From a virus: DNA of 43,976 nt. Each line of letters begins with the position of its first letter. Position 1 is the first letter of the stretch. The position numbers and the translations under genes are program-made. The notes below the pieces were generated by a model that had not been told where the DNA came from, did not search any database, and saw only the letters and a program-made list of their open reading frames with translations. The stretch is taken from positions 1 to 43,976 of IMG/VR virus record IMGVR_UViG_3300038461_000191. One strand, given 5' to 3'. This document shows, piece by piece, positions 1 through 23,569 of the stretch.

Positions 1-43
1 GTTGAAATTTGAAGCAATTGAAATGCAAAACATGAGAACTTAA
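1..43 (+). CDS. 3' end of an upstream gene (partial)
   Basis: An open frame enters from the left edge in frame 2 and stops with TAA at 41-43. The last 13 residues read LKFEAIEMQNMRT. It lies 20 nt before the next ATG on the same strand, so it is probably the last codons of the preceding gene in the same operon. Too little is visible to name it. Confidence 0.5.
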   Translation, partial: LKFEAIEMQNMRT

Positions 44-63
44 AATAAATAAAAAATATAATT

Positions 64-516
64 ATGAACCCATATTTAGAAAACTTAAAAAAAGCAGTTG
101 AAACTGGTGATTTTAATTCAGAAGCTGCAAAAAAAATAATTGAAATCGATAAAAACGCAGACAATGCAAAAGGTTTGTTTTTAACAGAAGAAGAAAAAAA
201 CGAATTGGCTAAGAAACGCTTAGATGCTGTTTTGGAAGGTACTGTTGTTACCGAAGAAGAAATTTTAAAAATTAATTCAGAATACGATAAAAAAATGGAA
301 GAAATTAAAAAGCAAGATGCTGTCAATAAACAATTAGCAACATTAGTTGAAATTGAAGACATGGTAAAACTGAGTGTTGATGACATGATATCCTTTATAA
401 AAGAACTTGAAGATAAATTCAAAAAAGAATTTGATGAAAATGACCCGATTTTTGAGAAATTAAAAACAAAAATAATAGAAACAAAACTTAAATATATATC
501 TTTTATTAATTATTAA
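64..516 (+). CDS. Small charged helical protein, unknown function
   Basis: 150 aa, start ATG preceded by an A-rich leader (AATATAATT) without a Shine-Dalgarno, as in other genes here. The sequence is rich in Lys and Glu and looks all-helical, with probable coiled coil over roughly residues 60-145. There is no signal peptide or membrane segment and no family recognised. It is followed 15 nt later by the next gene on the same strand and lies shortly upstream of the baseplate genes, so a tail assembly or chaperone role is possible but only guessed from position. The reading frame is clearly coding: phage-like codon use and tight spacing. Confidence 0.7.
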   Translation: MNPYLENLKKAVETGDFNSEAAKKIIEIDKNADNAKGLFLTEEEKNELAKKRLDAVLEGTVVTEEEILKINSEYDKKMEEIKKQDAVNKQLATLVEIEDMVKLSVDDMISFIKELEDKFKKEFDENDPIFEKLKTKIIETKLKYISFINY

Positions 517-531
517 TTAAAAACAATTATT

Positions 532-990
532 ATGACAAAATTTGAAGAAGCATCTGAGGATGTAGTAAAACTTTTTGATGAAGTTAGAGACGGCACAACA
601 ATCCCACAGTGGGTTGAATTTAAGGTTCTTTGTAATAACAAACAAAAAAAAGACCCTTGCAAACTTATAAAATCAAACGATCTTGTAGAAACACTTACTG
701 AAGGATTAAACTTTGCAGTAGTAGTTAATGAAGAAATTTTTAACGAACTACCTGATGATATGAAAAAAATGGCATTTGATGAATGTCTCGCTGGTGTTGG
801 TGTTAGTGAACTTGATGCACTTTCGCTTGAAAAACCAAATTTTAATACACATACAGGTGTATTACAGAAGTATGGACATGACCCAATTATTGTTCTTCAC
901 GAATCAATCAAAAGTCTTTATGATACGAAAAAACAAAAAGAAGACGAAGAAAAAGCAGCAAAAAAAGAAAAGAAAAGTAAGAAGGGTTAA
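532..990 (+). CDS. Possible inactive relative of the putative phage metallopeptidase family
   Basis: 152 aa. Residues about 60-130 (NFAVVVNEEIFNELPDD, then MKKMAFDECLAGV, then TGVLQKYGHD) are arranged like the putative phage metallopeptidase family, where a core strand is followed by a helix with a DHExxH-type zinc site and a distal segment ending in RYG or KYG. Here the helix reads AFDECLAGV, so the zinc-binding histidines are absent and catalysis is unlikely. The C-terminus (about 134-152) is a highly charged Lys/Glu tail ending KKEKKSKKG. It is the last phage gene before the IS607 element; the next phage gene is gp25-like. The family link is from memory of the pattern and is weak; the coding status is firm. 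Confidence 0.5.
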   Translation: MTKFEEASEDVVKLFDEVRDGTTIPQWVEFKVLCNNKQKKDPCKLIKSNDLVETLTEGLNFAVVVNEEIFNELPDDMKKMAFDECLAGVGVSELDALSLEKPNFNTHTGVLQKYGHDPIIVLHESIKSLYDTKKQKEDEEKAAKKEKKSKKG

Positions 991-1009
991 CTAACTGCTA
1001 CGAAAAATC

Positions 1010-1056
1010 TTAACAAAATTATACAACTTTTAACAAAAATTAACATAGAATTAACA
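1010..1056 (+). repeat. Four TTAACA direct repeats, helically phased
   Basis: TTAACA occurs at 1010, 1030, 1040 and 1051, with spacings of 20, 10 and 11 nt, roughly one or two DNA turns. The array lies between the last left-hand phage gene and the first ORF of the IS607 element. It could be a binding array for TnpA or a regulator, or the operator of the element promoter. The function is inferred. Confidence 0.45.
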
Positions 1057-1095
1057 TAATTTTTGTATTTTTACCGAAAATAAAAGTATATATAT

Positions 1096-1314
1096 ATGAG
1101 AAAGACAACTAAGAAAATTATGGAAAATTTAAAGAATCAATCGTTAAAAGTTGTTCGTGTTGATAAACATGAATTTGAACTTGATAATGGTGATGTGTAT
1201 CCGATACCCTTTGAACTCGATGTTGATGAAGACATTTCTGTTGAGGAATTCCAAAAGATACTGGATTCGTCAAAAGAACTGATGCTAAAAATCCTTGACC
1301 AATCGAATGAGTAA
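1096..1314 (+). CDS. Small acidic protein translationally coupled to tnpA
   Basis: 72 aa. Basic N-terminus (MRKTTKKIMENLK), then a compact region with VVRVDKHEFELDNGDVYPI that looks like a beta hairpin, then an acidic helical end. Its stop TAA at 1312-1314 overlaps the likely tnpA start ATG at 1307 (ATGAGTAA), which suggests coupled translation. No family recognised. It could be a phage gene beside which the element landed, or an accessory or regulatory protein of the element. The overlap favours the latter or a shared transcript. Confidence 0.6.
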   Translation: MRKTTKKIMENLKNQSLKVVRVDKHEFELDNGDVYPIPFELDVDEDISVEEFQKILDSSKELMLKILDQSNE

Positions 1315-1963
1315 ACTTTTATCCATACAGAAGGTATCGGAAATGCTTGGAGTAACAAAGAAAACTCTTCGAATTTGGGATAATGAAGGTAAACTACCAT
1401 CAATTAAAACTATTGGTGGTCACAGAAAGTATCTTGAAGACGATATACAGAAGTTCATGGGTGAACAGAAGATTGAATATGTGATTGATTCTGTTGCTAC
1501 ATATAGTCGTGTAAGTAGTCATGAACAAAAAACCAAAGGAGATTTAGATAGACAGTCTCAGAGAATATCTGAGTACTGTGCTAAGAAGAAGTATAAGGTT
1601 GAACATATAATAAAGGATGTTGGGTCAGGATTATCGGATACAAGAATCGGATTTGTTAAACTCGTGGATTTGGTTATTAAGAAAAAAATTAGTAAGATTG
1701 TAATCGAAAACAAGGACCGATTGACCAGATTTCAATTTAATTTAATAAAGACCTTCTTCAATAGTTATGATGTTGAATTGGAGTGTATCGAGAACAACAA
1801 CATATCTGATGTGGAAGAGTTCGCAAATGATGTTATGACGCTTATGGCGAGTTTTTCGGGTAAATTATATGGTCGTAGGTCAGCGAAGCGTAAAAAAGAA
1901 TTGAAAGAACAAAAACTAAAAGAGAATCAAATTAAAACAAAAAATTATGAAAAATTTATTTAA
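1307..1963 (+). CDS. tnpA: IS607-family serine recombinase transposase TnpA
   Basis: 218 aa from ATG 1307; an upstream TTG at 1295 would add four residues and is less likely. Residues 1-50 form a MerR-like winged HTH (MSKLLSIQKVSEMLGVTKKT and IGGHRKYLEDDI), the N-terminal DNA-binding domain typical of IS607 TnpA. Residues about 60-200 are a small serine-recombinase catalytic domain: TYSRVSSHEQ with catalytic Ser70, then GDLDRQ, VIENKDRLTRF and the region IV helix. The C-terminus is Lys-rich. Members of this family cut and join DNA through a 5' phosphoserine, without target duplication. It overlaps the preceding ORF by 8 nt and the following ORF by 17 nt. All expected motifs are intact, so it looks active. 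Confidence 0.95.
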   Translation: MSKLLSIQKVSEMLGVTKKTLRIWDNEGKLPSIKTIGGHRKYLEDDIQKFMGEQKIEYVIDSVATYSRVSSHEQKTKGDLDRQSQRISEYCAKKKYKVEHIIKDVGSGLSDTRIGFVKLVDLVIKKKISKIVIENKDRLTRFQFNLIKTFFNSYDVELECIENNNISDVEEFANDVMTLMASFSGKLYGRRSAKRKKELKEQKLKENQIKTKNYEKFI

Positions 1964-2276
1964 AAAACAATTGGGTGAAAATAGTGCCGTAACAGAACAA
2001 GTGTTAAAAAATATTAAAATTAAAACCTATAAAAATGGTGAGGAAATTAAAGTTGGTGACAAAGTATTATACGCTTTACTTACCGATATGGTTGAAGGAG
2101 AAATAAAACCAATTGATTGGTCTGTTGATGTGCCTATGGAAAGAGATAACTTCCCACATGAAATAAAACTTGAACTCATCACATTAAACGAATTTCAATT
2201 TGATTTATATACATATGATAACAGATTTCAAGATACGATAACCAAAGATGGTTTACCAATTATTCGATTAAAATAA
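1947..2276 (+). CDS. Unknown ORF lodged between tnpA and tnpB
   Basis: 109 aa, starting 17 nt before the tnpA stop and ending 8 nt before tnpB, so it is embedded in the element transcript. Basic amphipathic start (MKNLFKKQLGEN), then KVGDKVLYALL and EIKLELITLNEFQFDLYTYD, predicted as a beta-rich domain. No family recognised. Standard IS607 elements carry only tnpA and tnpB, with adjacent or overlapping genes, so an interposed gene is unusual. It could be cargo, a TnpB or TnpA modulator, or a phage gene trapped by TnpB acquisition. Its overlap with tnpA makes it likely to be co-translated. Confidence 0.6.
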   Translation: MKNLFKKQLGENSAVTEQVLKNIKIKTYKNGEEIKVGDKVLYALLTDMVEGEIKPIDWSVDVPMERDNFPHEIKLELITLNEFQFDLYTYDNRFQDTITKDGLPIIRLK

Positions 2277-2284
2277 TAATAATA

Positions 2285-3418
2285 ATGAAACTAATCAGGT
2301 CAACCAAATGTAGTCTGAAATTCGCCACAGCGAAGAAACAGAATGATTTATTAATCATCTTGAGTGAGTACTCAAAGGTGGTTAATATCTTCATTGACTA
2401 TTTCTGGTTGAATTCTGAGAAAGCAACAAAAGGAGAACTTCTTAAACCCGTTGTCGATATACCCGAAACTTGGTTATCGGCACGACTACGAAAGGTAGCA
2501 GCAAGGGAAGCCATTGACATGATTAATGCTTCAAGACAAAGATGGAAAGAGAAAGCCGTTAAGCCTGTTCATAAAGGTAATCGTATGTATGTTAGTTGTA
2601 CCATTGCTGACTTAATACCAACAAAAAACAACACATATAAAACCGAAGACAGCAGACTTTTTGATGCTTGGTTACACATAGCCAGCGTTGGTAATAAGAT
2701 GATAATGGACTTACCGATAAAATACCACAAGCACTTCAACAAGTATAACAATATCGGTAAGAGACTGAATTCATATATCATAACCAAGAATTATGTTCAG
2801 TTTAGTTTTGAAATCATAACCGAGACAAAAAAGGAAGGTAAACATTGCATCGGTATTGATACAGGTATAAACGCATTAGCAAGTCTCAATAACGGTAATC
2901 AGTATGGTAAAGACATAAAATCATGTATTGAGAGAGTGAAACGTTGTAAGCAGAAGTCCAATGGATATTATGTTGCTAAGAGAGCATTAAAACAAAGAAT
3001 TGATGAAACAGCAAAGGAAATATTAATTAAAGAGAATCCTGATTTGATAGTTGTAGAACAACTTAAAAATATGGGACATAAATCAAAACTCAAAGCACGA
3101 TTGAGTAAAAGTATTCGTGCTTCGATTGGTACTTGGAATTGGAAGTATTGGTTAAATCGACTTGAAATGCAGTGCGAACTAAACCGTGTTTCGTTCAGAA
3201 CTGTTAGTCCTTATCATACCAGCACAACTTGTCCAGCATGTGGTCATACCAATCGGGGAAATCGAAATGGAGAGATGTTCAAGTGTCTTAGTTGTGGTCA
3301 CGAAGACAATGCAGATGTAAATGCAGGAAAGAACATCAGGAATCGATTTCTTACGGGACTCTACGGTGCTCGTTACAAAGAATTGAATGATGTACAAGAT
3401 TGTGCAGTTTCAATTTAA
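2285..3418 (+). CDS. tnpB: IS607-type TnpB, RNA-guided RuvC nuclease
   Basis: 377 aa, near the usual TnpB length. The RuvC triad is complete: D192 in CIGIDTGINALAS, E258 in DLIVVEQLKNM and D344 in DNADVNAGKNI. A zinc ribbon lies at C316/C319 and C334/C337 (TCPACG and CLSCG). The N-terminal part (1-180) matches the wedge/REC region. TnpB proteins use an omega RNA made from the transposon right end to guide cleavage and keep the element at its site. The guide scaffold would lie in the 3' end of this gene and the following 50-100 nt. It starts 8 nt after the upstream ORF. It is expected to be functional because no catalytic residue is lost. Confidence 0.95.
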   Translation: MKLIRSTKCSLKFATAKKQNDLLIILSEYSKVVNIFIDYFWLNSEKATKGELLKPVVDIPETWLSARLRKVAAREAIDMINASRQRWKEKAVKPVHKGNRMYVSCTIADLIPTKNNTYKTEDSRLFDAWLHIASVGNKMIMDLPIKYHKHFNKYNNIGKRLNSYIITKNYVQFSFEIITETKKEGKHCIGIDTGINALASLNNGNQYGKDIKSCIERVKRCKQKSNGYYVAKRALKQRIDETAKEILIKENPDLIVVEQLKNMGHKSKLKARLSKSIRASIGTWNWKYWLNRLEMQCELNRVSFRTVSPYHTSTTCPACGHTNRGNRNGEMFKCLSCGHEDNADVNAGKNIRNRFLTGLYGARYKELNDVQDCAVSI

Positions 3419-3455
3419 CGGTTTTAAAAAAGCATTTTAATTATTAATCCAGACA

Positions 3456-3488
3456 AATCCCGACACATAAAATGTCGGGATTTTTTAT
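3456..3488 (+). terminator. Rho-independent terminator after tnpB
   Basis: Stem AATCCCGACA (3456-3465) pairs with TGTCGGGATT (3473-3482) around a 7-nt loop and is followed by a T run. It separates the IS607/upstream transcript from the late promoter at 3495. It may be the original phage terminator or lie at the element right end. Confidence 0.85.
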
Positions 3489-3494
3489 TTATTA

Positions 3495-3503
3495 GTATTT
3501 ATA
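3495..3503 (+). promoter_or_regulatory. Late-type promoter GTATTTATA for the gp25-like gene
   Basis: TTAGTATTTATA immediately after a terminator and 15 nt before ATG 3519. This is one of about a dozen copies in the window at the same position relative to starts. No conserved -35 is visible. Confidence 0.7.
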
Positions 3504-3518
3504 GAAAAATCTTTTATA

Positions 3519-3917
3519 ATGGCTTCATATAATATTACCTTTCCATTAAATGATGATGTCAGCACAAATACTTATTTTTTAATGAGTAAAGTGACCAAAG
3601 ACGCATTCAGTTCTGATTTGTTATTACTCTTGCTTACAAGTAAAGGTGAAAGATATTATGAACCAGACTATGGTACTAATCTATTAAAATATATATTCGA
3701 ACCAAACGATAATTTAGATGCAAATGATATTGAACAAGAAATTAAAACAACTGTATCAACATATATTCCAGCACTTACAATTAATAGTGTAACTTTTAAT
3801 TGGCTTACTGATGACGAAGGAAATCCAATATCGGAGAATCAGGTAAATGTTAACATTAAATTTACATTTAGCGAAGATGCTTTTAGTGAAAAAGGTGAAT
3901 TAGATTTAAACTTTTAA
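3519..3917 (+). CDS. gp25-like baseplate wedge protein
   Basis: 132 aa, the normal size for the GPW/gp25 family. The diagnostic stretch LLLTSKGERYYEPDYGTNL and YIFEPND (about residues 38-65) matches the family signature GER-x-x-PxxGxxLxxxxFEP. In T4 the gp25 protein is a wedge component at the junction with the tail sheath and is needed for contractile tail baseplate assembly. It is the first gene after the terminator and late promoter and is followed 18 nt later by the gp6-like gene, the standard contractile-tail order. Confidence 0.9.
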   Translation: MASYNITFPLNDDVSTNTYFLMSKVTKDAFSSDLLLLLLTSKGERYYEPDYGTNLLKYIFEPNDNLDANDIEQEIKTTVSTYIPALTINSVTFNWLTDDEGNPISENQVNVNIKFTFSEDAFSEKGELDLNF

Positions 3918-3934
3918 AATATAAAATATAAAAT

Positions 3935-5782
3935 ATGGCAAACGACACAACTCAAAACATTATACAATACGGAAGCAGAACTTTCGGAGATATAAGAACT
4001 GATTTAATAAGTTATATTCGTCAGGCATACCCAGAGATTTTATCTGACTTTACTGATAGTTCAGTTGGCGCAATGCTTATTGATTTAAATGCTGGCGTTA
4101 CTAATAACTTATCTGTCAATACTGATAGAGCATTTCAGGAAACGCAAATAGACTATGCACAACAAAGAGCATCAATTTTAAATATTGCGAAAAATATGGG
4201 ATTTAATATTCCAGCAAGAAGACCTTCAGTAACTGTAATCGATTTTACTGTAACAGTTCCTGTTCTTGGTGACAAACCAGACGCTTCGTATTATCCTCAA
4301 TTACAAGCAGGTGCACAAATACTTGGTGGTGGAAAGATATTTGAAACGCAAGCAATTATTGATTGGAGTTCACCAATAAGTAATTTAGGTGACCCTAATC
4401 GTTCTATTATTCCAAACACAGATTCAAATGGTATTATTATTAATTACAGTATAACAAAAAGAGAAGTGGTTATTAATGGTTCTACAAGCATTTTTAAAAG
4501 AGCAATTAGTTCAACAGATATTGTACCGTTTTTTTCAGTAACATTGCCAGACCCAGACGTACTCGAAATAGATAATGTTATTTTATTGGAAGGTACTAAT
4601 TATTCAAGTAATCCGACTGCTGCAGATTTTGCTACAGCAGCAAACAAATATTATGAAGTAGATTGGCTTGCACAACAAAGAGTATTTGTTGCAAATAGAA
4701 ATAGTTCACAGCCAAATACAAATACAAATGGACTTAAGGCAGCAACATGGATTGATGTGACCAAAAAATTTATAAAAGAATTTACAACTAACGGTTATTG
4801 TAAAGTAATATTTGGTTCGGGTGATGCAGATGTTGATGCATTCAAATCAGGTTTTCTCAAAATGGGTGTAAGTAATCAATATTTTCTTGAAAACTTTTTA
4901 AATAATACAGCATTGGGCGAAAAATTATTGGCAAATTATACATTATTTATTCAATATAGAACTGGTGGTGGTAGTAATTCAAACGTGGGAGCAGGTACTT
5001 TAACACAACTTGGTAATTATAATTTAACAGTTCAAGGTTCTCGTCAGGATTATAATCAGACAGTACAAAGAAGTTTAGCCGTTAATAATCCTATTCCTGC
5101 AATTGGTGGTAATGATGGATTGAGTATTGAACAAATAAGACAATTAATAAAATATAATTTTAGTAGCCAAAATAGAGATGTAAATTTAACAGATTATTTA
5201 TTACAGCTTTATAAGATGCCGGGGCAGTTTGGTTCACCTTTTCGTGCTAATTCAATGAAATTAAATAATAAAGTTGTTATTTCAACATTAGGTATTGGGT
5301 CAGATGGTAAATTAGACAATACAAGTACCACATTAATGAATGAAAATATTGCAGAATATCTTAGTCAATTCAGAATGCTTAATGATTATGTTGAAGTAAC
5401 CAACGGTAAGATATTTAATTTGGCTTTTGATGTTGATGTATATGTTGAAAATGTTGCCGATAATCAGGTTGCAAATAGTATTATTACACTTGTTAGAAAC
5501 TATCTGGATATTAATAATTATGAAATGAATCAGGATTTGTTTCTGGGTCCGCTTCAACGTGAAATACTCTCAGCCAATGGAGTTATTAACGTTATTGACA
5601 TTAAAGTATATAACAGAGTGGGTGGTCAATATTCAAATAACGTTATTTCTCAAGATATTAATCCAAGTACTGGTGAAATAACTATCATTAACAATACAAT
5701 TCATTCAACTGAAGATAGTATGTTTGAAATAAAATTCCCAGAAAAAGATATCACAGTCTTCTTACGTAAATCAACAGGTTAA
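3935..5782 (+). CDS. Baseplate wedge protein, gp6/J-like
   Basis: 615 aa, similar in length to T4 gp6. Residues about 1-75 (YGSRTFGDIRTDLISYIRQA, YPEILSDFTDSSVGAMLIDL) and 85-110 (ETQIDYAQQRASILNIAKNMG) are the characteristic N-terminal part of gp6/baseplate J proteins. The middle carries a beta-rich insertion; the C-terminal third (NLAFDVDVYVENVADNQ, LQREILSANGVINVIDI) resembles the J-type domain. gp6 forms the central ring that ties wedges together and triggers sheath contraction. The stop overlaps the next start by 1 nt (TAATG), indicating coupled translation. Confidence 0.85.
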   Translation: MANDTTQNIIQYGSRTFGDIRTDLISYIRQAYPEILSDFTDSSVGAMLIDLNAGVTNNLSVNTDRAFQETQIDYAQQRASILNIAKNMGFNIPARRPSVTVIDFTVTVPVLGDKPDASYYPQLQAGAQILGGGKIFETQAIIDWSSPISNLGDPNRSIIPNTDSNGIIINYSITKREVVINGSTSIFKRAISSTDIVPFFSVTLPDPDVLEIDNVILLEGTNYSSNPTAADFATAANKYYEVDWLAQQRVFVANRNSSQPNTNTNGLKAATWIDVTKKFIKEFTTNGYCKVIFGSGDADVDAFKSGFLKMGVSNQYFLENFLNNTALGEKLLANYTLFIQYRTGGGSNSNVGAGTLTQLGNYNLTVQGSRQDYNQTVQRSLAVNNPIPAIGGNDGLSIEQIRQLIKYNFSSQNRDVNLTDYLLQLYKMPGQFGSPFRANSMKLNNKVVISTLGIGSDGKLDNTSTTLMNENIAEYLSQFRMLNDYVEVTNGKIFNLAFDVDVYVENVADNQVANSIITLVRNYLDINNYEMNQDLFLGPLQREILSANGVINVIDIKVYNRVGGQYSNNVISQDINPSTGEITIINNTIHSTEDSMFEIKFPEKDITVFLRKSTG

Positions 5783-6663
5783 TGGAATTAATAAAGAAAA
5801 CCATATATAGAATAATGACAACTGGCACAACAACTGGTTGTACTGGTACATGTCGTGTAATTATTCCAGATATCAGTACTGGCGTTACATATAATTTTAA
5901 GATATTGTTAAATCAAGAAATAAAAGATGCTGGATTTTTTGATGCATATGTATTAGACTCTCCATTTAATTATATTCAAGTATCAGGTGCTACAAGTGCA
6001 GATATTATACAAAAACTCATAAAATTTAAATCTCTTTTAACTGGTGGTACAACACTTGCGGGAAGTGGCTTGTTAATATCTGGTAGTAGTGGTTATATTA
6101 TTGGAACTGACGAATATTGGAGTGGTGGTACGCTAATAACGCCATCACATAATCATATTGTTACTGGAATGAGTTATTGGAGTGGTGGTACATGGGTATC
6201 ATTAATAATCAATTCGACACATTCAGTTACAGGACATTCAACAAGTAGACTTGCAGAACTAAGAAAATATGTAACTGGTGGTACTATAGCGCAAATATAT
6301 GTAACTGGTGGTACTTCCATAATAGATGGGATTGTTTTGGCTCAGTCAACGGGAAATACTATTGTTTATTTTCTTGGTGGAATTCGATATGTCGATATTC
6401 TTACAGGAGATACATCGGGAACAACATTTAATTTTATCACAAGTGGATATACAAACAATCCTAATTTTATAATTAAGCCAATATATCAAACTCCAAATAA
6501 GGAAAATATTATTAGTAACCCAAAAATCAGTAATGATGTATTTATAATAAGACAAGAATTACCAGCATTTGATGGAAATTATAGATTAGAATATATAAGA
6601 AAATTGGTTGATTTGGAAACATATGCAGCAGGTAAATTTTTTAATGTAATTAATAACACATAA
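5782..6663 (+). CDS. T/S-G-rich baseplate-region protein
   Basis: 293 aa. N-terminus MELIKKTIYRIMTTGTTTGCTGTC, then many short T/S-G-x-T/S motifs (VTGGT twice, YWSGGT twice, LTGGT, TGDTSGTT), typical of beta-turn-rich virion proteins. The C-terminal 60 residues (NDVFIIRQELPAFDGNYRLE, LVDLETYAAGKFFNVINNT) look like a compact domain common at the ends of baseplate or tail proteins. No enzyme motif. It is coupled to the gp6-like gene by a 1-nt overlap, so it is likely a wedge or peripheral baseplate component. Exact T4 equivalent not assigned. Confidence 0.75.
   Translation: MELIKKTIYRIMTTGTTTGCTGTCRVIIPDISTGVTYNFKILLNQEIKDAGFFDAYVLDSPFNYIQVSGATSADIIQKLIKFKSLLTGGTTLAGSGLLISGSSGYIIGTDEYWSGGTLITPSHNHIVTGMSYWSGGTWVSLIINSTHSVTGHSTSRLAELRKYVTGGTIAQIYVTGGTSIIDGIVLAQSTGNTIVYFLGGIRYVDILTGDTSGTTFNFITSGYTNNPNFIIKPIYQTPNKENIISNPKISNDVFIIRQELPAFDGNYRLEYIRKLVDLETYAAGKFFNVINNT
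6115..6315 (+). repeat. Short coding repeats (YWSGGT and VTGGT units)
   Basis: A 17-nt sequence, TATTGGAGTGGTGGTAC, is repeated exactly at 6115 and 6175, 60 nt apart, and GTAACTGGTGGTACT is repeated at 6271 and 6301, 30 nt apart. The spacing is a whole number of codons (20 and 10), so these are protein repeats produced by tandem duplication. Confidence 0.8.
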
Positions 6664-6667
6664 AAAC

Positions 6668-7498
6668 ATGAAAACCAGAAAATTTATTACCAATTATACA
6701 AATGAAGAGATTGATGAAATAGTTTCACTATATTTATCAGGAATATCATTAACGTCAATTAGTAATAAATTAAATGTTGTAAGACGCACTATAAAGAAAA
6801 TACTCCTATTAAATAATGTTTGGATTGAAAATAGAGATAATGTAAAAATTAATTTTTCAAATAAAGAAATTGATAAAATAAAAGAAATGTATTTGAACGA
6901 AAATTTTAGTACAGAAAAAATAGGATGTTATTTCAATGTTAGTAAGATACCAATAATAAAAATATTAAAAAATTTAGATATTTTGAGAAAAGGATATAGT
7001 AACGGTATTAAAATTAATTTAACTGAAGAAAAAAAAGAAAAAATTGAAAATTTATATTTAAATAAATATAAAAGTGCTGAAGAAATTGGAAAAGAACTTA
7101 ATTTAACCGCATCATTTATAAATAAACATTTAACTACCGTTAACTATAGAAGAACTGTTAGTGAGGGAGTATCAATTGGTTTAGTTAAACGTACTGGAAT
7201 TGAATATGATAAATATTTAAAAAACTTACCAGAATATAAAAAATATAGATTATTTGTTGTTAAATTAACCAATAGACAACCAATAAATTTATTGGAAAAT
7301 TATAATAAAAGAGGTGTTTCTGGAATTGATGGCGCATATTGTTTAGATCACAAATATTCAATTTTTGAAGGATTTAAAAATGGCATTAAGCCAGAAATAA
7401 TTGCAAGTTTAAAAAATCTTGTATTTATACCTTGGAGAGAAAATGTTATTAAAAGAACAAAATGTTCGATAACTAAAGAAGAATTAATAAATATTTAA
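6668..7498 (+). CDS. HNH-like homing endonuclease with three HTH repeats
   Basis: 276 aa. The N-terminal two thirds hold three similar helix-turn-helix units of about 50 residues (TNEEIDEIVSLYLSGISL, SNKEIDKIKEMYLNENFS, TEEKKEKIENLYLNKYKS), each followed by a recognition-helix pattern, suited to reading a long DNA site. The C-terminus has an HNH-type core: YCLDHKYSIFEGFKNGI (D227, H228), then LKNLVFIPWRENVIKRTKC. It sits alone between two baseplate genes, 4 nt after one and 4 nt before the next, the usual behaviour of a free-standing phage homing endonuclease. Codon use is strikingly A/T-rich. No promoter of its own is evident. Confidence 0.85.
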   Translation: MKTRKFITNYTNEEIDEIVSLYLSGISLTSISNKLNVVRRTIKKILLLNNVWIENRDNVKINFSNKEIDKIKEMYLNENFSTEKIGCYFNVSKIPIIKILKNLDILRKGYSNGIKINLTEEKKEKIENLYLNKYKSAEEIGKELNLTASFINKHLTTVNYRRTVSEGVSIGLVKRTGIEYDKYLKNLPEYKKYRLFVVKLTNRQPINLLENYNKRGVSGIDGAYCLDHKYSIFEGFKNGIKPEIIASLKNLVFIPWRENVIKRTKCSITKEELINI

Positions 7499-22640: not shown

Positions 22641-22676
22641 TTTGCATTAAAGCCTTTGTTTTGATGCAAATTTTTT
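22641..22676 (+). terminator. Terminator with a promoter nested in it
   Basis: TTTGCAT (22641-22647) pairs with ATGCAAA (22664-22670), followed by TTTTTT. The loop contains the -33 element of the next promoter. Confidence 0.75.
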
Positions 22677-22685
22677 ATATATTTG
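22655..22685 (+). promoter_or_regulatory. Bacteroidota-type promoter, near-consensus
   Basis: TTTG (22655-22658), 19-nt spacer, TATATTTG (22678-22685), the best match in the window. It lies 5 nt before ATG 22691, so the endonuclease message is almost leaderless. Confidence 0.85.
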
Positions 22686-22690
22686 TCATT

Positions 22691-23569
22691 ATGAAATGGA
22701 CAAAAGAAAAATGTCATGAAGAGGCATTAAAATATAGGGGAAGAACAGAATTTCACTTAGGATGTGAAGGTGCATATAATGCAAGTAAACATAATAATTG
22801 GCTAGATGAAATATGTTCCCATATGATATTAAAAATAAAGTCTAAAAATTATTGGACTAAAGAAAAATGTATAGAAGAAGCATTGAAATACAATCAAAAA
22901 AAATATTTTCGTGAGAAATCGTATTCTGCTTATCAAATTTCATTAAAAATGGGTTGGTTAGATGAAATATGTTCTCATATGATAAAAATTGGTAATAGAA
23001 TGTTTAGATGTATATATGTTTATGAATTTTCAGATAATTCTGCATATGTTGGTTTGACGTGCAATTTATATGAACGTAATGCAAACAGAAAATTTAATAA
23101 TAATGACCAAGTGACAAAACATATTAATGAAACAAATTTAAAACCAGAATTAAAACAACTTACTGATTATGTTTCAATTGAAGAAGCAACATTACTTGAA
23201 AATAAATATATTGAAAAATATAGTATTAATGGATGGAACATTTTAAATAAAGTAAAGGGAGGTTCAATTGGTTGTACAAAAAAAATGTGGACAAAAGAAA
23301 AATGTCAGATATTTGCATTAAAATATACAACAAAAAATGAATTTAGAAACAATTCTTATTCTGCATATATTGCAGCCAAAAAATATGGATGGTTAAATGA
23401 AATATGTTCACATATGACCATTAATTATAGACATTGGATGATTGACGAATGTGGAGAAGAAGCATTAAAATATAATAATAGAGATGAGTTTGCTGAAAAT
23501 AATAAAGCTGCATACATGTGGGCATTTAGAAAACAAATTTTAAATCAAATTTGTTCACATATGAAATAA
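22691..23569 (+). CDS. GIY-YIG homing endonuclease flanked by DNA-binding repeats
   Basis: 292 aa from ATG 22691. Two N-terminal repeats (WTKEKCHEEALKYRGRTEF and WLDEICSHM; then WTKEKCIEEALKY), a central GIY-YIG nuclease (CIYVYEFSDNSAYVGLTCN, about 107-125, with Arg at ERNANRKF, Glu at LLENKY and Asn in NGWNILNK), then two more repeats ending in ICSHM. The repeats, about 45 residues with conserved W-EKC-EALKY-EF-AY-W-L-EICSHM, are presumably DNA-binding. Own strong host promoter, so it is likely to be expressed early. A paralogue lies at the right window edge on the other strand. It separates the replication genes. Confidence 0.9.
   Translation: MKWTKEKCHEEALKYRGRTEFHLGCEGAYNASKHNNWLDEICSHMILKIKSKNYWTKEKCIEEALKYNQKKYFREKSYSAYQISLKMGWLDEICSHMIKIGNRMFRCIYVYEFSDNSAYVGLTCNLYERNANRKFNNNDQVTKHINETNLKPELKQLTDYVSIEEATLLENKYIEKYSINGWNILNKVKGGSIGCTKKMWTKEKCQIFALKYTTKNEFRNNSYSAYIAAKKYGWLNEICSHMTINYRHWMIDECGEEALKYNNRDEFAENNKAAYMWAFRKQILNQICSHMK

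What the first reader, a model, noticed from the sequence alone, without database searches (positions are those of the whole stretch)
1010..3455. IS607 element with two extra ORFs overlapping or abutting tnpA
Seen: 72-aa ORF / tnpA (8-nt overlap) / 109-aa ORF (17-nt overlap with tnpA, 8 nt before tnpB) / tnpB. Both transposition proteins look intact. Standard IS607 elements have only tnpA and tnpB (known). The 109-aa ORF between them could be cargo or a modulator of TnpA or the RNA-guided TnpB. The element is in a phage and close to baseplate genes, where TnpB might also target competing phages.
Basis: partly seen in the sequence, partly recalled or inferred. Interest (0 to 1): 0.6.

Follow-up and report, generated by a model that had tools for sequence, protein, structure and literature searches.

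The report
Phage IS607 with swappable cargo slot
A small jumping gene in an uncultured phage carries, besides its two usual genes, a conserved third gene and a "slot" that holds different passenger genes in different phages, so it can act as a gene shuttle between phages.

Summary
In detail: 72-aa ORF / tnpA / 109-aa ORF / tnpB, all intact. Three sister-phage contigs lack the element; cutting 987..3421 out of the window reproduces their sequence exactly. The element is therefore 2,435 bp, inserted at GGG|T, and both extra ORFs came in with it.

The two ORFs are different things. The 72-aa ORF is a constant part of a phage IS607 clade: it lies directly upstream of tnpA in about 40 contigs, is under strong purifying selection, and was found without tnpA only in a deletion remnant. 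The 109-aa ORF is one of about 20 unrelated gene sets in a slot between tnpA and tnpB; others hold a helicase, methionine aminopeptidase, homing-type nucleases, restriction-modification-like genes or a nested IS607. Gaps of 100 bp or more occur in 25 of 39 elements with the 72-aa gene and 0 of 24 without. tnpA, cargo and tnpB have discordant histories, so the parts recombine. Relatives of the 109-aa gene sit in another phage outside any tnpA element.

The right end encodes a covarying RNA hairpin, and the expected guide matches sister phages' empty sites perfectly. RNA-guided homing of element plus cargo is inferred, not shown.

The parts
987..3421 (+). whole mobile element (LE ... RE), inserted in target GGG|T with a GG core
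   Evidence: excision gives L029/L030/L031 exactly over 200 bp; flanks 98-100% identical
984..1095 (+). left end: GGG of the target plus conserved TTAACTAACTGCTACG and AT-rich leader with repeated TTAACA
   Evidence: GGGTTAA left end in 10 other copies with different flanks; GGGT at the left end of further copies read by eye
1096..1314 (+). 72-aa accessory gene ('o72') of this IS607 clade
   Evidence: HMM hits in about 40 contigs directly upstream of tnpA; dN/dS 0.03-0.18; AF2 model pLDDT 88.5
1307..1963 (+). tnpA, IS607 serine transposase (MerR-type HTH + resolvase domain)
   Evidence: Pfam, PHROG 6620 E 2.6e-52
1947..2276 (+). 109-aa cargo gene in the tnpA-tnpB slot
   Evidence: replaced by unrelated genes in other elements; relatives in L003 outside any tnpA element
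2285..3418 (+). tnpB, RNA-guided nuclease family (RuvC D-E-D + zinc finger intact)
   Evidence: PF07282 E 2.4e-17, alignment A1
3353..3373 (+). covarying hairpin of the presumed right-end (omega) RNA inside the 3' end of tnpB
   Evidence: 99.3% of cells paired, 6/6 pairs with double changes, 0/500 shuffles
3417..3422 (+). right-end motif AACGGT (element end AACGG + first flanking T), invariant
   Evidence: invariant in all 24 aligned right ends
3422..3442 (+). presumed guide: TTTTAAAAAAGCATTTTAATT
   Evidence: perfect match beside GGG in empty sites L029, L030, L031, L033
532..990 (+). target gene: 152-aa ORF whose last residues (FKKAF) are cut off; the element's own left end supplies the new stop
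   Evidence: empty sites read ...KKGFKKAF-stop

Best explanation
The feature is a complete, recently mobile IS607-family insertion sequence of a phage-centred clade that works as a gene shuttle. A constant left module (left end, 72-aa gene, tnpA) and a constant right module (tnpB, right-end RNA, right end) flank an operonic slot for one or a few passenger genes, here the 109-aa gene. TnpA moves everything between the ends into GG(T) targets (inferred from the IS607 family and from the empty sites). Cargo and modules are exchanged between elements by recombination in the shared arms (discordant histories are shown; the event itself is inferred). TnpB, guided by the sequence next to the right end, probably cuts empty sites in sister phages so that repair copies element and cargo in (inferred from family knowledge and the perfect guide match). 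The 72-aa protein is probably an accessory factor or regulator of TnpA (inferred from its fixed, overlapping position).
For: Exact empty sites in three contigs. 72-aa gene directly upstream of tnpA across the clade, absent from compact classic IS607. Slot contents differ between elements with Pfam/PHROG/PADLOC names. Gap of at least 100 bp in 25/39 with vs 0/24 without the 72-aa gene, Fisher p 8.7e-8 (L172 reassigned by hand because one search shows its 72-aa gene). Conserved sequence upstream of tnpB ends at its ATG; cargo ORFs are co-directional and abut it. Helicase cargo in three elements at three different sites; cargo under purifying selection. Mosaicism: L111 tnpA groups with L115/L117 at 100/100 while its cargo is 91% identical in DNA to that of L108; L125+L126 are one tnpB clade (99/95), rejected for tnpA, p-AU 0.005. 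Right-end RNA hairpin covaries; guide matches empty sites.
Against: No transposition, RNA or cleavage data. Contigs are metagenomic fragments found by similarity to this TnpA/TnpB, so frequencies are biased. 14 of 39 elements with the 72-aa gene have no cargo, so the slot is optional. The AU tests used groups chosen after seeing the trees. The 109-aa protein has no recognisable fold (AF2 pLDDT 39) and only one related contig, so benefit to the phage is unknown. Some small slot ORFs may not be genes.
Confidence: 0.8

Rival explanations
1. The 109-aa protein is a dedicated partner (modulator or anti-nuclease) of TnpA or TnpB, an integral gene of the element.
For: It overlaps tnpA, abuts tnpB and is co-directional.
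Against: No other element of the clade has it, including those with 85-88% identical TnpA/TnpB; overlapping or abutting is the rule for the unrelated slot genes too; its relatives lie among phage nucleotide-metabolism genes in L003.
Confidence: 0.07
2. An ordinary compact IS607 that acquired one random insertion between tnpA and tnpB; no general slot.
For: IS elements pick up insertions; L108 holds a nested IS607 in the same place.
Against: About 20 unrelated gene sets at the same junction in elements sharing the 72-aa gene versus none of 24 compact ones; the slot genes are intact, co-directional and mostly not transposons.
Confidence: 0.08
3. The 72-aa and 109-aa ORFs are phage genes that happen to flank the IS, which inserted between or next to them.
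For: 109-aa relatives occur in a phage without a nearby tnpA.
Against: Both ORFs lie inside the block that is missing from three otherwise identical sister contigs; the 72-aa gene travels with tnpA in unrelated contigs.
Confidence: 0.02

Closest known systems
IS607 family (IS607 of Helicobacter pylori, ISXfa1)
   Same: Serine-recombinase TnpA with N-terminal HTH, GG target with (G)GG preference (PMC6188088), accessory TnpB, no target duplication beyond the GG core
   Different: Extra conserved 72-aa gene before tnpA and a variable cargo slot between tnpA and tnpB; papers found describe tnpA and tnpB only (PMC6188088, PMC11061315)
IS607 TnpB with right-end RNA (ISXfa1, ISFba1)
   Same: RuvC nuclease with zinc finger, structured RNA at the right end, fixed nucleotides at the boundary (PMC10711439), G-rich TAM such as GAGGG (PMC11061315), like the GGG found here
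   Different: No Rfam match (so not the RAGATH-18 type) and the RNA hairpin overlaps the tnpB coding end; activity untested
Transporter IS (tIS; IS carrying passenger genes)
   Same: Passenger genes unrelated to transposition lie inside one IS
   Different: I found no report of this for IS607; known IS607 carriage is of genes bracketed by two copies (ISChh1 with cfr(C), PMC10770853)
TnpB gene drive of insertion sequences (PMC11870625) and phage homing elements
   Same: Guide matches empty sites of sister genomes, so cutting and repair would copy the element in
   Different: Would carry exchangeable cargo genes and act between phages; not shown here

Membership tests
IS607 family | TnpA = serine recombinase with N-terminal MerR-type DNA-binding domain | tested here: met
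   PF00376/PF12728 at residues 4-54, PF00239 at 64-202; catalytic motifs invariant
IS607 family | insertion at GG with no target duplication beyond the core | tested here: met
   exact empty sites
IS607 family | transposition catalysed by TnpA via GG exchange | not testable with these tools
   needs a transposition assay
TnpB RNA-guided nucleases | RuvC D-E-D residues and zinc finger | tested here: met
   invariant D192, E258, D344, C316/C319/C334/C337, PF07282
TnpB RNA-guided nucleases | structured right-end RNA ending at the element boundary | tested here: met
   covarying hairpin and invariant AACGGT end; transcription itself not tested
TnpB RNA-guided nucleases | RNA-guided DNA cleavage | not testable with these tools
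   guide matches the empty site but no assay
RAGATH-18 type IS607 TnpB | RAGATH-18 RNA beside tnpB | tested here: not met
   no such match at E <= 1 in window 1-6000
IStron (IS + group I intron) | group I intron in the element | tested here: not met
   no group I intron match at E <= 1
Transporter IS (tIS) | passenger genes inside a single IS, not needed for transposition | tested here: met
   slot genes vary or are absent between elements; dispensability for transposition is inferred from this

The most novel reading that the evidence does not exclude
A clade of phage IS607 elements is an RNA-guided cargo-homing system: TnpB cuts the empty site in co-infecting phages, repair copies the element in, and any gene in the tnpA-tnpB slot (restriction-modification-like sets, nucleases, helicases, small phage genes) spreads with it; the 72-aa protein is a new dedicated component of this machinery.
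Probability: 0.35. Interest if true: 0.78.

Novelty: new variant of a known kind. Interest (0 to 1): 0.6.

Why it matters
IS607 elements are treated as minimal: tnpA plus tnpB. A clade with a conserved third gene and an exchangeable operonic cargo slot would explain how single non-structural genes hop between unrelated large phages, and gives a concrete setting to test whether TnpB acts as a homing nuclease that spreads cargo. It also supplies compact TnpB/right-end-RNA pairs with a predicted GGG TAM and known natural targets.

Tried and rejected
Structure of the 109-aa protein from 3 sequences: pLDDT 39, unusable. Wider search for 109-aa relatives with alignment A4: nothing new; none in GenBank phages. 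Fold of the 72-aa protein: good model, but no Foldseek match at E <= 0.001 and best VIA-align Z 4.3 to unrelated chains; no function inferred. Weak ZT_dimer Pfam hit of the 72-aa protein (E 0.016, below cut-off) discarded. Sub-threshold Rfam hits near the right end discarded. TnpB family in 84,980 species genomes: no relatives confirmed by tblastn; TnpA gave two Bacteroidota MAG contigs. My automatic gap table put L172 among elements without the 72-aa gene; corrected; contig-edge loci were left out of the group without the gene. The tnpB grouping of L111/L115/L117 is not rejected (p-AU 0.11), so that single comparison alone does not prove exchange.

Full report
What is there. The window is a 43,976-bp IMG/VR virus record. 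TnpA has a MerR-type HTH and a resolvase domain; TnpB has the Cas12f1-like TNB domain and all catalytic and zinc-finger residues. The 72-aa and 109-aa proteins have no Pfam match above cut-off and no PHROG match worth the name.

The ends. Contigs with the same downstream gp25-like gene were fetched. L029 and L030 match the window at 100% over 1-988 and 3417 onward, and L031 at 98-100%, but lack everything between. Excising 987..3421 reproduces all three exactly over 200 bp. The empty site reads AAGAAGGG|TTTTAAAA; the occupied one AAGAAGGG-TTAACTAAC...TTTAACGG-TTTTAAAA. This is what IS607 exchange at a GG core gives, and a (G)GG target is preferred by IS607 itself (PMC6188088). The insertion replaces only the last five codons of the upstream gene, and the element's own left end supplies the stop. 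Both extra ORFs lie inside the missing block, so they arrived with the element, which has been mobile recently.

The 72-aa gene. Relatives were collected with protein and alignment searches. An HMM for the 72-aa protein hits 46 ORFs, directly upstream of and usually overlapping tnpA; the exception is a deletion derivative (L120/L121) with the left end, a piece of the gene and tnpB. Classic compact IS607 relatives (L182-L212, apart from L199) lack it. Its dN/dS against the nearest relatives is 0.03, lower than tnpA (0.08) or tnpB (0.10). AlphaFold predicts alpha-beta-beta-beta-alpha with pLDDT 88.5; no solved structure matches convincingly. It is a true gene of this clade; a role as TnpA accessory factor is inference from position only.

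The slot. Between tnpA and tnpB the related elements hold different things (with names): 109 aa (window); 72+67 aa (L006); a ResIII/DEAD helicase with or without a 147-aa gene (L110, L132, L109, at three different sites); a nested IS607 plus YopX-like, 73-aa and 68-aa genes (L108); the same YopX-like gene (L111); a methionine-aminopeptidase-like M24 protein (L118); a homing-nuclease-like gene (L117); a 5.3-kb set with ResIII helicase, Eco57I-type and N6 methylases (L126); LAGLIDADG proteins (L169, L170); a D12 methyltransferase (L172); a lipoprotein-like gene (L130); and in a Bacteroidota MAG an HSP90-like ATPase related to MzaB (L213). The conserved sequence upstream of tnpB ends at its ATG, and cargo ORFs run in the same direction and abut or overlap their neighbours. 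That explains the odd overlap in the finding: the tnpA tail reads on into the cargo start. After removing near-identical copies, 25 of 39 elements with the 72-aa gene have a gap of at least 100 bp, against 0 of 24 without it (Fisher p 8.7e-8; L172 reassigned). The sample was gathered by similarity to this element, so the proportions are not population frequencies.

Cargo origin and exchange. The 109-aa gene has two tandem relatives (36-47% identity) in contig 3300010391_000174 (L003/L114), among dUTPase- and ThyX-like phage genes (named from sequence by eye) and with no tnpA detected in the fetched stretch; a tnpB-only element lies about 5.5 kb away. So it is a phage gene family picked up by the element. 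Modules have different histories: L111's tnpA groups with L115 and L117 (100/100) and is rejected as kin of the window group (p-AU 0.0003), yet its cargo is 91% identical in DNA to that of L108; L125 and L126 form one tnpB clade (99/95) that tnpA rejects (p-AU 0.005), and L111+L108 is rejected for tnpB (p-AU 0.0024). Groups were chosen after seeing the trees. Recombination in the shared arms is the simplest route; the event itself is not seen.

TnpB and the right end. All 24 aligned right ends finish in AACGGT. A hairpin inside the 3' end of tnpB pairs in 99.3% of cells, with double changes in all six pairs and 0 of 500 shuffles as high; since it overlaps codons, part of the variation is codon wobble, but the slid controls fall to 30-50%. 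In IS607 the guide follows the right end and fixed boundary nucleotides belong to the scaffold (PMC10711439); reported IS607 TAMs are AGGAG or GAGGG (PMC11061315). Here the expected target, GGG followed by TTTTAAAAAAGCATTTTAATT, is present and perfect in the empty sites of L029, L030, L031 and L033. A TnpB gene drive has been shown for plasmids (PMC11870625). Homing into sister phages is thus a sound but untested inference.

Comparison and verdict. By domain content and target site this is an IS607 element; it differs from described members by the extra conserved gene and the internal cargo slot. The papers searched describe IS607 with tnpA and tnpB only, and cargo only as genes bracketed by two IS607 copies (PMC10770853; searches); subscription literature could not be searched, so absence of a prior report is not proven. 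I rate it a new variant of a known kind.

Noticed in passing
window 6668-7498: ORF among baseplate genes matches HNH endonuclease PHROGs (phrog_8446, E 1.1e-12) and phrog_5104: a likely second homing-type mobile gene in the same gene cluster.
   Followed up: no
window 22661-23569: Protein matches phrog_20046 (E 7e-51), the same family found four times in the C-terminal part of the helicase cargo of L110.
   Followed up: no
L051, L057, L074, L078, L080, L081 between the gp25-like and gp6-like genes: Extra segments of roughly 0.6-1.8 kb sit at the gp25/gp6 junction in several related phages, a possible insertion hot spot.
   Followed up: no
window 3458-3487: Strong hairpin (TCCCGACA...TGTCGGGA) with T-run just after the element, present also in empty sites: a phage terminator that could set the 3' end of the right-end RNA transcript.
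   Followed up: no
L108 7341-9118: A second, different IS607 (tnpA + tnpB) is nested at the 3' end of the first element's tnpA, truncating it.
   Followed up: partly
L006 and L009: Same element and same right flank but different left flanks: either an assembly chimera or an element-adjacent deletion or inversion.
   Followed up: no
L213 5796-10175 (Bacteroidetes MAG): 72-aa gene, tnpA, MzaB-like HSP90-type ATPase (PADLOC E 1e-20) plus a 200-aa ORF, tnpB: defence-like cargo in the slot outside a recognised phage contig.
   Followed up: partly
L003 4419-6767: Tandem duplicates of a dUTPase-like gene, a small 63-65-aa gene and the 109-aa family lie side by side in this phage.
   Followed up: no
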